Shown piece after piece: positions 30,810 to 48,018 of a DNA stretch of 64,000 nucleotides. This DNA comes from Devosia aurantiaca (GTDB lineage Bacteria > Pseudomonadota > Alphaproteobacteria > Rhizobiales > Devosiaceae), in assembly GCF_011058215.1 (NCBI RefSeq), contig NZ_JAALFG010000002.1, positions 1 through 64,000 on the forward strand, written 5' to 3'. The number at the start of each line of letters is the position of its first letter. Position 1 is the stretch's first letter. Both the position numbers and the translations under genes were made by a program. Under the pieces are notes generated by a model. It was not told where the DNA came from. It made no database searches and was given only the letters and a program-made list of their open reading frames with translations.

Positions 30810-31488
30810 GCCTCACCTCCGCCTCGCCGACGTCCACCGCCATTATGGCGAAGGCGATCGCACCGTCCGTGTGCTCGAAGCCGCTAACCTCACGGTGGAA
30901 AGCGGCGAAATGGTCGCCTTGGTCGCGCCTTCGGGCGCCGGCAAGTCGACTCTACTGCATCTTTGCGGCCTCCTCGAATCGCCGCAGTCCGGCGAGATCG
31001 AGATTGTCGGCCAGCCCACGAGCAAGCTGAGCGATCGCGGACGAACCCAGTTGCGCCGCTCGACCGTTGGTTATGTCTATCAGTTCCACCACCTGCTGCC
31101 CGAATTTACGGCGCTGGAAAACGTCGTCATGCCGCAGCTCATCGTCGGCAAGTCCGATAAGGAGTCGGCGGGCAGGGCCATGGAATTGCTTGGCCTGCTT
31201 GGCGTCGGTCACCGCGCGACGCACCGACCGGCCGAACTTTCCGGCGGCGAACAGCAGCGCATCGCCATTGCCCGCGCTGCCGCAAACCACCCCCGCGTCA
31301 TCCTTGCCGACGAGCCCACGGGCAATCTCGATCCGGAAACCAGCGACGTCGTCTTCGGCGCACTCAAGGACCTGATCCGCAACGAAGGCGCTGCAGCGCT
31401 CATCGCGACGCACAACTACGATCTGGCGCGGCGGGCAGACCGGATTGTCACGATTCGAGGCGGGCTGGTGGTCGCGCACGAGCTCTAA
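30802..31488 (+). CDS. lolD: Lipoprotein-releasing ABC ATPase LolD
   Basis: Powers lipoprotein release with LolC/E. The 228 residues carry Walker A ([12 protein letters not shown]), signature [14 protein letters not shown], Walker [18 protein letters not shown] and the H-loop [12 protein letters not shown] 30802 overlaps the lolC stop (ATGAGTAA). Confidence 0.96.
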
Positions 31489-31490
31489 GT

Positions 31491-31677
31491 CACCCCCTTC
31501 CGAGCACCGCTAGGCTCGTGCCTCGCCAAGCTCTGCTTGCCTTCCCCTCTGAGGAAGAAGGTGGGCATCCTGTATTGTCCACGATAGTGCCACGCCGACC
31601 GATCTCACCTTCCCCCTTGAGGGGAAGGCAAGCGCAGCTTAGGCGCGTCGCGAATTAGCGCAGCTAGGATGGGGGTG
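31491..31677. repeat. Long imperfect intergenic inverted repeat
   Basis: The left arm (31491-31558, beginning CACCCCCTTCC and containing CTGCTTGCCTTCCCCTC) matches the reverse complement of the right arm (31610-31677, containing GAGGGGAAGGCAAGCGCAG and ending GGGGGTG) along about 68 bases with mismatches. A roughly 50-base centre separates them. It has no coding potential. It resembles the intergenic repeat families common in Hyphomicrobiales and could form a transcript-terminating hairpin after lolD. Confidence 0.7.
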
Positions 31678-31740
31678 TCGGCCTCTCCTCCAACTCATCT
31701 ATCCCGCTTATCCCCTCCGTAAAATCTTCCGCTAACTTCA

Positions 31741-31950
31741 CCCCATCAGCCGGGTGGAGATGGGGTTGCAACGATCAACCGTCCGGCGACAGCCGGGAGG
31801 GGTCTTTATCGTTGAGGATCCTGGGTCCGTGGACGGGGCTTTAGTAATCATCCCCTAAGACGCTGCCTGCCAGAAAACCCGGCGCCCCGAGGCGAGCTTC
31901 GTCTCACAAACTAAACTATTCACGAGGCGAAAGCAGTCTCGGGGCTCCAT
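31741..31950 (+). ncRNA. Candidate structured RNA of unknown family
   Basis: Four to five hairpins follow one another without coding potential. CCCCATC/GATGGGG (31741-31747 with 31759-31765) is a perfect 7 bp stem. CCGGC/GCCGG (31783-31787 with 31792-31796) closes on GACA. GGGG/CCCC (31835-31838 with 31852-31855) follows. The last is long: GCCCCGAG/CTCGGGGC (31884-31891 with 31938-31945), continued by GCTTCGTCTC against GAGGCGAAAGC, with an 18-base A-rich loop (31906-31923). The strand is uncertain and is given as that of coaD. It could be a free small RNA, a coaD leader, or paired terminators. I recognised no known family. Confidence 0.4.
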
Positions 31951-32058
31951 CATCGATCACCAACCGGTGGCAAACCCAACCGGCGCTTCGGCACGTCCCG
32001 GCCCTTGCCAAGCCGCAACGCCGCATGACAAAAAACTGCCAACAACGGGGGAGACGGC

Positions 32059-32553
32059 ATGAGCGAGTTGGTGGGGTTCTATCCTGGGTCGTTCGACCCG
32101 CTGACCAATGGCCATCTCGATGTCATCGAGCGCGCCTGCAAGCTGGTGGATACGCTGGTCGTTGCGGTCGGCATCAGCGCGACCAAGAAAAGCCCGCTTT
32201 TTACCCACGAGGATCGTATTGCCATCCTCCAGCAGGTGCTGCCCGCGATCGGTAAGCGAACGGCTACCGAATTTCGCATCGTCGATTTCTCGGGCCTGAT
32301 GGTCAATGCCGCGCGCCAGCACGGCGCCAAGCTGATTATTCGCGGCCTGCGCGACACCACCGACTACAATTACGAAATGCAGATGGTGGGCATGAACGCC
32401 CAGATGGCGCCCGAACTGCAGACTGTTTTCCTGCCCTCCAGCCCGCCGGTCCGGCATATCTCGGCCACATTGGTGCGCCAGATCGCCGAGATGGGCGGAG
32501 ACATTTCCGCCTTCGTCCCGCCAATTGTCCTCAAGGCTTTGAAGTCCTCATGA
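32059..32553 (+). CDS. coaD: Phosphopantetheine adenylyltransferase
   Basis: Fourth step of coenzyme A synthesis, transferring AMP to 4'-phosphopantetheine. The 164 residues show the nucleotidyltransferase N-terminus GFYPGSFDPLTNGHLDVIE with the HxGH-type TNGH motif, RGLRDTTDYNYEMQM and the SSPPVRHISATLVRQIA end. GGGGAG lies seven bases before the ATG. The stop overlaps the next ATG (ATGA). Confidence 0.96.
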   Translation: MSELVGFYPGSFDPLTNGHLDVIERACKLVDTLVVAVGISATKKSPLFTHEDRIAILQQVLPAIGKRTATEFRIVDFSGLMVNAARQHGAKLIIRGLRDTTDYNYEMQMVGMNAQMAPELQTVFLPSSPPVRHISATLVRQIAEMGGDISAFVPPIVLKALKSS

Positions 32554-45804: not shown

Positions 45805-45814
45805 CTTCTTCAGT

Positions 45815-45901
45815 AGACCTCATCCTGAGCCTGTCGAAGGAAGAGGTCGTGGCATAATCGTTTGCCCGACCCCATGGTTCGACAAGCTCACCATGAGGTC
45901 T
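45815..45901. repeat. Intergenic inverted repeat between convergent glmS and recG
   Basis: Arms of 24 bases, AGACCTCATCCTGAGCCTGT plus CGAA at 45815-45838 and the reverse-complementary TTCGACAAGCTCACCATGAG plus GTCT at 45878-45901, differ at about three positions and enclose 39 bases. The CTGTCGAAG/TTCGACA core is a repeat family common between genes in alphaproteobacteria. A half-copy (CATGCCTGTCGAAGGG) occurs at 37188-37203 before tgt. It probably serves as a bidirectional terminator here. Confidence 0.75.
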
Positions 45902-45911
45902 TGGAGGCCAG

Positions 45912-48018
45912 TCACCCGGCCCGGATCAGCGGCAGCGCGAGGTCCTTGCGGAAGAGGTAAAGCAGCGTTCGCGCTGCTTCTCCGTCCGGTCGTTTCAGCG
46001 CCGGGTTGCGCTCCATCAAGGCCTTGGCGTCGTCATGGGCAAATTCCAGCAGGTGCCGGTGGACATCCGGCACGGCCAGCCGATAGCCCGGCATGCCGGA
46101 CTGGCGCGTGCCCAGCAGGTCGCCCTGACCACGCAGCTCTAGATCCTTCTCGGCGATCTCGAACCCGTCTTCCGTCGACTTGATGGTCTCGAGCCGCGCT
46201 TGCGCGGTTTCGCTCAGCGGGTCCTTGAACAGCAACAGGCAGGCCGAGCGCTGTGATCCACGGCCCACCCGTCCACGCAGCTGATGCAATTGCGCGAGGC
46301 CAAAGCGTTCCGCATGCTCGATGATCATGATCGTGGCATTGGGCACATCGACCCCGACCTCGATCACCGTCGTCGCGACCAGCAACTTGATCTCGTTGGC
46401 CTTAAACCGCGCCATGACCTCCTGCTTGGCCGCTGCCGACATACGGCCATGCACCAGGGCGACCTGATCGCCGAATACCTGCCGCAGCTCGGCGAAGCGA
46501 TCCTCGGCGCTGACCACGTCCAAAGTCTCGCTTTCCTCGACGGGGGCAAACCCAATAGGCCTGCGCACCCTCCGCCAATCGCGCCTGCAACCGGGAGACG
46601 ACGCGAGAATAGTCCCCGATCGAAAGCACGGCGGTGTCGATCGGCTGGCGCCCCTTGGGTTTTTGCCGAAGCACGCTGACGGCCATGTCGCCGAAATGCG
46701 TCAGAACAAGCGTGCGCGGTATTGGCGTCGCGGTCATCACCAGGAGGTCGGTGTGTCGGCCCTTGTCGGAGAGCGCCAGGCGCTGGTGCACGCCGAACCG
46801 GTGCTGCTCATCGACCACGGTGAGACCCAGGTCCTTGAACTCGATATCCGACTGGAACAGCGCATGCGTGCCGACGGCGATATGAATCGTGCCATCCGCC
46901 AGGCCTGCCCGGATGGCGCGCCGTTCCGGCGCCGACATTTTGCCGGTGAGCAGCGCAATGCCGAGCCCGGCCTGTTCGGCGATCGGCTGGATGGTGTGGA
47001 AATGCTGGGAGGCCAGCAATTCCGTTGGTGCCATCAATGCCGATTGCGCGCTGCTTTCCGCCATGGCGGCCATCGCCATCAGCGCAACGACGGTCTTGCC
47101 CGAGCCGACATCGCCCTGCAGCAGGCGTGACATGCGCTCGGGCGCCGCAAGGTCGGCGCGTATTTCCCCAAGCGCCAGTTCTTGCCCCTCGGTCAGCTCG
47201 AACGGCAAGAGGCTACGCACCTTATCGGTGAGTTCGCCGCTGAACTGCCGCGCCACGCCATGGGCCGAAACCATGCTCGAGCGAACAAGCTGCAACGTGA
47301 TCTGCCCGGCCAGATATTCGTCATACGCCAGCCGCTGCCGGGCTGGGGACCAGAGCTGTCCCTGGTCCGGATCGTCCGGCAAATGCACCTGCCGCATGGC
47401 CTCGGCAAAGGGTGGCCACTTGCGTCCCGACAATGTGTCCGCCGGGATCCACTCGGGCAGCGCCGGGACGCTATCGACCGCCTGCCGCACCAGCTTGGCA
47501 AGTGCCTTGGAGTTTAAGCCATTGGTGAGCGGATAAACCGGCTCTACGAGGGGCAGGGTGGCGAACTTGTCGGCTTCGACGATGTAGTCGGGATGCGTGA
47601 TCTGCTTTTCACCGTTGAAGAAGGCGATCTGCCCTGAAACCCATCGCTCTTCGCCGACGGGCAGAGCCTTTTCGACCCAGCCGCCTTGTGCACGAAAGAA
47701 GACGAGGCTGATGTCTCCGGTCTCATCGTGGGCGAAGACCCGGTGCGGAATGTGCGGTTTGCCGCGCGGCGGCGGTTGGTGCCGGTCGATATGGAGGCGA
47801 AGGGTCACCACCTGGTTCATATAGGCTTCGACAATGCCGACCTGTCGCCGCCGGTCGACGACGCCGGAGGGCATATGCATCAGGATGTCGAGGACGATTG
47901 CCTCCTGACCCTCGGGTGCGCCGAAAAAACGCGTCAGCAGGGCAGCCAGCTTGTCGCCCACGCCTTTGATGGAATGGAGCGAACGGAACAGCGGTTGAAG
48001 CGTTTCGGGTCTAGACAC
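45912..48018 (-). CDS. recG: ATP-dependent DNA helicase RecG, one frameshift
   Basis: Remodels stalled replication forks and Holliday junctions. N-terminal wedge domain, then the helicase core: GDVGSGKTVVALMAM (Walker A), VVDEQHRFGVHQRL (DEQH box), [11 protein letters not shown], and the C-terminal HQLRGRVGRGSQRSACLLLF. The frame breaks at about 46546 in a run of C after QAYWVCP and resumes at VEESETLDVVSAEDR. Restored length is about 701 residues. Start at ATG 48018. Divergent from sdhE-mfd. Confidence 0.94.

What the first reader, a model, noticed from the sequence alone, without database searches (positions are those of the whole stretch)
31741..31950. Unclassified structured RNA candidate upstream of coaD
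A run of stable hairpins, with a perfect 7 bp stem at one end and a roughly 18 bp compound stem with an A-rich 18-base loop at the other, fills gene-free sequence. The density of complementary segments exceeds what I see in other intergenic regions here. It could be a small RNA, a riboswitch-like leader for coaD, or paired terminators.
Basis: partly seen in the sequence, partly recalled or inferred. Interest (0 to 1): 0.6.

Follow-up and report, generated by a model that had tools for sequence, protein, structure and literature searches.

The report
Multicopy Devosia RNA with kissing loops
The sequence in front of coaD is one of 14 found copies, in this genome, of an unlisted structured RNA seen only in the Devosia group of bacteria; its folded shape is kept by paired mutations although its letters change, so it probably works as an RNA, but its job is not known.

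Summary
The structure is real. Window ~31745-31998 is one copy of a multicopy structured RNA family: 14 places in this genome, five of the window's subtype (A) and nine of another (D). A model of the 3' hairpin hits 84 of 136 genomes of the same bacterial family; in an order-wide draw all 14 genomes with hits belong to it. No Rfam match. In 27 subtype-A sequences the hairpins and a loop-loop (kissing) helix keep 94.8% of pairs, with far more double changes than shuffles; subtype B agrees; the kissing helix covaries between subtypes, weakly in D. Promoter-like boxes lie just upstream. A coaD leader is not supported (25 of 30 coaD loci examined lack a clear hit), nor are intrinsic terminators. 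One orthologous site carries subtype A in one species and D in another between 93-95% identical flanks. Best reading: a stand-alone small RNA with a genome-specific partner; transcription untested, function inferred.

The parts
31707..31715 (+). CTTATCCCC box, promoter-like upstream element
   Evidence: TTATCC in 104 of 128 upstream regions of copies, base-shuffled mean 2.6, max 8 of 200; the regions are related to one another, so this shows conservation, not independent gain
31733..31738 (+). TAACTT, -10-like hexamer (TAnnnT), 17 bases after ATCCCC
   Evidence: box plus spaced TAnnnT in 58 of 128, shuffled mean 1.1, max 4; TAnnnT alone 84 of 128 against 59.7, max 73; no match to the standard sigma-70 consensus
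31745..31998 (+). whole RNA as inferred: start about 6 bases after the -10-like box, end after the conserved tail; ends not measured
   Evidence: alignments of copies and identity profiles
31749..31787 (+). hairpin H1: 31749-31755 with 31781-31787, inner 31764-31768 with 31776-31780
   Evidence: 96.8% and 97.8% of cells paired; 6 of 7 outer pairs have a change on both sides
31770..31775 (+). AACGAT in the H1 loop, pairs with ATCGTT 31808-31813 (kissing helix)
   Evidence: 92.0% of cells paired in subtype A, 97.1% in subtype B; covaries between subtypes
31800..31821 (+). hairpin H2: 31800-31804 with 31817-31821, loop holds ATCGTT
   Evidence: 96.9% paired, 5 of 5 pairs have a change on both sides
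31835..31855 (+). hairpin H3, GGGG 31835-31838 with CCCC 31852-31855; weakest helix
   Evidence: 78.7% paired
31884..31945 (+). long 3' hairpin H4 with 18-base A-rich loop 31906-31923; most widely conserved part, basis of model R1
   Evidence: 17 pairs, 5 with both sides changed in 34 sequences; 98.9% and 95.2% paired
31964..31998 (+). conserved 3' tail (CCGG...CCGGCGCTTCGGCACGTCC)
   Evidence: similar tails seen by eye after H4 in many copies; not counted
32059..32553 (+). coaD (downstream neighbour, not part of the RNA)
   Evidence: relatives found

Best explanation
It is one copy of a multicopy, lineage-specific structured small RNA (about 200-255 nt) made as its own transcript from promoter-like boxes just upstream. 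Shown: the fold (H1, H2, a loop-loop helix joining them, H3, the long hairpin H4) is kept by compensatory change; copies lie between genes, mostly co-directional with the next gene; bodies are much alike within a genome and differ in letters between species. Inferred: it is transcribed; it acts in trans; and since the copies of one subtype in a genome share one body while other species have another, the body fits a common partner of that genome (a protein most likely), with H4 as a stabilising 3' end and the many copies giving dose or site-specific expression.
For: 27 subtype-A sequences: 94.8% of 1183 cells paired, 63 cells changed on both sides against 17.0 shuffled, 0 of 500; slid versions 38.6-48.1%. 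29 subtype-B sequences: 95.8%, 52 against 17.1, 0 of 500. Kissing helix: own partner 5.53, permuted mean 4.68 (max 5.06 of 300), partner from another subtype 4.35; 47 non-redundant sequences. U-G pair kept in 31 of 34 at columns 42/67, which fits RNA of the + strand. Promoter-like boxes. Next gene on the same strand in 66 of 80 copies; 43 fully co-directional against 4 reversed. Body blocks mostly 0.9-1.0 identical among paralogues of four genomes. Neighbouring genes unrelated.
Against: No transcript data. No standard sigma-70 match. No partner found. 12 of 75 same-genus genomes had no hit in a search with stricter filters, so it is not needed by the whole genus. Two subtypes can share a genome (A and D in G000). 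Kissing pairs do not change on both sides within subtype A or B alone and reach only 4-4.4 in subtype D, L030, L226 and L247. The possible closing helix 31792-31797 with 31878-31883 does not covary. In one search the count of further pair types is no better than shuffles (151 of 500). I drew the structures after seeing the alignments, and shuffles ignore relatedness. In G149 and the G010 set the promoter stretch is about as alike as the body, so recent copying is an alternative there.
Confidence: 0.5

Rival explanations
1. A selfish, non-autonomous mobile element: the RNA fold serves its own spread or tolerance, and copies are alike through recent transposition or gene conversion rather than through a host function.
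For: Dispersed copies, different subtypes at orthologous sites, one bacterial family only, mosaic bodies within a genome, promoter stretch about as alike as the body in G149 and the G010 set.
Against: Orientation bias, 43 against 4 between co-directional genes; in G027 and G028 the H4 loop and upstream stretch differ between copies with near-identical bodies; no hit in viral contigs (exact pattern), plasmids or phages; the copy before coaD is shared by G000 and G113 with 94.5% identity including flanks.
Confidence: 0.25
2. A DNA- or mRNA-level repeat of the REP/BIME kind (terminator, mRNA stabiliser or insulator), not an RNA with its own job.
For: Intergenic, multicopy, long hairpin H4; promoter-like sequence seems to follow some copies (my reading). 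Transcriptional activity at S. meliloti REP elements and repeats is reported (PMC2873474, passages seen).
Against: Several hairpins and a kissing helix kept by compensation; own promoter-like boxes; no T run on the + strand; over 200 bases, REPs being 20-40 bp (PMC3733652, abstract seen).
Confidence: 0.15
3. A riboswitch or attenuator leader of coaD.
For: Same strand, 107 bases between the hairpin model's end and the coaD start; the orthologous copy exists in G113, and G002, G009 and G011 also have a copy before coaD.
Against: 25 of 30 coaD loci examined lack a clear hit; coaD's own TGACAAAA-like motif stands in all 13 forward-strand loci with readable upstream DNA, 10 of them without the element; other copies precede leuD-, pgk-, valS-, clpB- and dapD-like genes (names recalled from the sequences).
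Confidence: 0.04

Closest known systems
REP/BIME and rhizobial intergenic mosaic elements
   Same: dispersed, intergenic, hairpin-forming, many copies, mosaic (recalled for RIME/BIME)
   Different: REPs are 20-40 bp palindromes (PMC3733652 abstract); this is a 200+ nt multi-hairpin unit with a loop-loop helix and promoter-like boxes
Multicopy bacterial trans-acting small RNAs (Qrr, LhrC, cuckoo RNAs; recalled)
   Same: several copies per genome with separate promoters
   Different: here the two 5' apical loops pair with each other, copies are more numerous and subtypes replace one another; no Rfam family matches
Guide RNAs of mobile elements (IscB/TnpB omega RNA, IS110 bridge RNA; recalled)
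   Same: structured, multicopy, some with pseudoknots
   Different: no Rfam family of that kind among matches up to E 5; TnpB domain in 1 of 136 family genomes; no guide-like variable end seen. IscB and IS110 proteins were not searched

Membership tests
Rfam families (4227) | score at or above a family's gathering threshold | tested here: not met
   only two tRNAs in the whole window; in 31480-32070 at E<=5 five hits, all far below their thresholds
coaD riboswitch/leader | conserved association with the regulated gene | tested here: not met
   clear hit in 5 of 30 coaD loci held, the 30 best of 72 found; one marginal (E 0.11); L223 had only about 200 bases upstream
coaD riboswitch/leader | ligand-responsive control of downstream expression | not testable with these tools
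   needs a reporter assay
intrinsic terminator pair | G+C-rich hairpin followed at once by a T run | tested here: not met
   none on the + strand; one on the - strand, 0.7 expected
MITE-type element | terminal inverted repeats | tested here: inconclusive
   one inverted pair in 31480-32060, inside the neighbouring repeat; the search also missed the interrupted H4 stem, so it is not sensitive
MITE-type element | target-site duplication at an empty site | not tested
   no close genome with a clean empty site was looked for
REP/BIME | short 20-40 bp palindromic unit | tested here: not met
   conserved unit spans about 200-255 bases
stand-alone structured small RNA | conserved secondary structure with compensatory changes | tested here: met
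stand-alone structured small RNA | own promoter | tested here: inconclusive
   conserved spaced boxes; consensus scan negative
stand-alone structured small RNA | a discrete transcript | not testable with these tools
   no RNA data
TnpB omega RNA | a TnpB partner in the genome | tested here: not met
   PF07282 in 1 of 136 family genomes, not in G000
reverse-transcriptase-linked RNA (retron, group II intron) | a reverse transcriptase in carriers | tested here: not met
   PF00078 in 37 of 136 genomes; none in G000, G010, G027, G113, which carry copies

The most novel reading that the evidence does not exclude
A bacterial RNA gene family whose transcribed body is exchanged as a cassette between fixed chromosomal sites, leaving flanks and promoter stretch in place, so that copies in one genome share a folded body while related species carry another at the same site. 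The body would co-evolve with one genome-specific partner, with the two 5' loops kept complementary to each other throughout.
Probability: 0.2. Interest if true: 0.8.

Novelty: new variant of a known kind. Interest (0 to 1): 0.6.

Why it matters
Bacterial RNAs that combine many copies with an elaborate tertiary fold are uncommon (recalled). A family with 14 copies in this genome, a fold kept by double mutations, different subtypes at the same site in near relatives, and a sharp taxonomic limit gives a tractable system for asking how dispersed RNA genes are kept alike and what partner their body fits. It may also matter for assembly: some copies lie at contig starts.

Tried and rejected
No phage, plasmid or viral-contig match. 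The closing helix 31792-31797/31878-31883 is compatible (96.9% of cells) but does not covary. Hits in genus g53 (L253-L256) share H4 but I could not place H1/H2 in them; they may be another RNA. The base table was misaligned and is not used; one search replaces it, but covers only the 65 of 131 regions with a TAnnnT at the searched spacing, so those columns are fixed by construction.

Limits of the counts; 80 copies of nine genomes; I fetched 80 loci, mostly the best-scoring listed hits plus four low-scoring ones of G000, dropped L168 (no R1 hit; its H4 is split by an insertion) and added the window; orthologues are included and gene calls are home-made; 27 of 30 subtype-A sequences (left out L159, L167 with an insertion, L169); 29 of 30 subtype-B sequences (left out L149, which lacks H2); 3 of 56 entries had a wrongly placed loop (L149, L080, L041) and stayed in the mean; the search region is wide and a few best matches lie outside the H2 loop (for example L102, L105, L037); subsets were chosen, 10 of 15 fetched copies of G028, 9 of 11 of G027, 6 of 13 of G010, 6 of 6 of G149. 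Shuffles keep base content only; permutes partners. Match numbers count both strands of the hairpin and at most 33 scored candidates, so they are not copy numbers; at E 0.01 one or two of the 84 genomes could be chance. One search scored 11 candidates per genome.

Papers: searched an open library; I saw the top 10-15 rows of long lists (one search found none) and none of the titles and abstract starts describes this family; passages of PMC2873474 and PMC3733652 were seen, no paper was read whole. 'Unlisted' means Rfam 15 and these searches only.

Full report
Names. A is the window's subtype; B and C are large subtypes of other genomes; D is the second subtype of the window's genome G000. The genus is Devosia: four contig lengths of G008 equal those of Devosia sp. 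Root436. That the family is Devosiaceae is recalled; the tool gives only 'f1'.

Observation. The stretch 31741-31950 folds better than each of 200 shuffles on the + strand (z -3.38) and less clearly on the - strand (z -1.94, 7 of 200). The long 3' hairpin with an 18-base A-rich loop is as described; the 7-bp 5' stem exists but is not conserved. Among the window's intergenic stretches it ranks high, below two other places. No Rfam family fits.

A repeat family. Window 31690-32058 matches five places of its own genome, itself included, at 76-100% identity. A covariance model R1 of the 3' hairpin, built from 34 copies, finds 14 places: five of subtype A (81-84 bits) and nine at 33-45 bits, all nine of which I read and place in subtype D; the other 14 hits are the same hairpins on the other strand. 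In the family, 84 of 136 genomes have a hit at E<=0.01, in 8 of 16 genera; 12 of 75 same-genus genomes have none. In a draw of 397 genomes of the order, the 14 with hits at E<=0.001 are all of this family. An exact hairpin pattern found 30 stretches in named genomes, titled Devosia, Rhizobiales or Alphaproteobacteria, plus one in a MAG titled Opitutus, and none in viral contigs. Plasmids and phages gave nothing.

Anatomy. 5' to 3': a CTTATCCCC box; 17 bases on, a TAnnnT box; then a conserved body from about 31745: H1, H2, a variable H3, the long H4 and a tail. On 27 A sequences, 94.8% of cells pair, 19 pairs and 63 cells have changes on both sides (shuffled 8.6 and 17.0; 0 of 500), and slid controls fall to 38.6-48.1%. 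On 29 B sequences: 95.8%, 8 pairs against 4.8 (1 of 500), 52 cells against 17.1 (0 of 500), but further pair types only 20 against 19.0 (151 of 500). I drew both structures after seeing the sequences, and the shuffles ignore relatedness; the slid versions are a partial guard.

Kissing loops. The H1 and H2 loops are complementary: AACGAU with AUCGUU in A, GGCGAA with UUUGCC, UUCGCC or UUCGCU in B, GCGACC with GGUCGC in C, AACGAC with GUCGUU in L028. Within A or B no pair of this helix changes on both sides, so the support is between subtypes: over 47 non-redundant sequences the own-partner score is 5.53, against 4.68 +/- 0.12 (max 5.06 of 300) with partners permuted, and 4.35 (1562 combinations) with partners from other subtypes (a cruder set of 56, gives 5.82 against 5.13 +/- 0.11). 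Subtype D, L030, L226 and L247 reach only 4-4.4. Copies in two other genera (G156 in g54, G149 in g52) show TTATC boxes, loop pairs of this kind and H4, the G149 loops weakly.

Context. Of 80 oriented copies the next gene is on the same strand in 66: 43 co-directional on both sides, 22 after a divergent gene, 1 with no upstream gene called; 10 are convergent and 4 reversed. Downstream genes called in G000 and G010 look like unrelated housekeeping genes (my reading). R1 finds a clear hit before coaD in 5 of the 30 loci held, those best matching the window's coaD, and a marginal one in L244. In 13 forward-strand loci with readable upstream DNA coaD keeps a TGACAAAA-like motif; 3 have the element, 10 do not. 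So the RNA is a neighbour of coaD, not its leader.

Evolution. The window copy has an orthologue in G113, 94.5% identical over 3 kb. At another site G113 carries A (L151) and G000 carries D (L180): flanks 93.0% and 95.0%, promoter stretch 75%, no significant alignment across the body, H4 or tail. L178/L137 (D and B) differ likewise, between flanks of 78% and 83%. In L148/L126 and L145/L121 (B and C) the bodies differ but alignment resumes just before H4, so the exchanged part need not be the whole transcript. Among paralogues, body blocks are mostly 0.9-1.0 identical with some at 0.68-0.88. In G027 and G028 the H4 loop (0.5-0.8) and upstream stretch (0.4-0.9) vary more. In G149 and the G010 set the upstream stretch is 0.85-1.0 and the loop 0.77-0.88, which recent copying could also explain. 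Flanks fall to 0.1-0.7, but in G149 they stay at 0.6-0.8 downstream.

How it may work. Alike bodies within a genome, other bodies in other species, and a fold always kept suggest a shared trans-acting partner. Reverse transcriptases (37 of 136 genomes, not in G000) and the TnpB domain (1 of 136) do not track the RNA; other partners were not searched. This step is inference.

Verdict. A multicopy structured RNA family not in Rfam 15 and not met in my literature searches (capped listings), most likely a stand-alone small RNA. Transcription and function are not shown.

Noticed in passing
window 31490-31690: A second, separate intergenic repeat directly upstream: self-complementary, about 190 bases (arms 31528-31549 and 31619-31640; z -10.5), with dozens of matches in the genome; it lies just before some copies of the RNA.
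   Followed up: partly
window 45805-46014: Very strongly folding intergenic stretch on both strands (z -7.3 and -6.1), possibly another repeat.
   Followed up: no
L212 (record JANPZY010000001.1): A MAG contig titled Opitutus sp. carries a hairpin scoring the same as one in a Devosia ginsengisoli MAG (L207); perhaps a mislabelled bin, or a real copy outside the family. Flanks not compared.
   Followed up: no
L253-L256 (G153, genus g53): Hairpins like H4 follow long, different bodies that resemble each other in part; possibly a related or independent multicopy RNA.
   Followed up: partly
G031:C36, G031:C40, G060:C70, G060:C190, G110:C73: Copies lie at the start of contigs, so the family may break assemblies.
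   Followed up: no
L110, L112, L113 (G028): Mosaic bodies: the usual H1-H2 part joined to a different H3 part, as seen in other genomes.
   Followed up: no
L168 and L167 (G001): Copies interrupted before or within H4 by an insertion.
   Followed up: no
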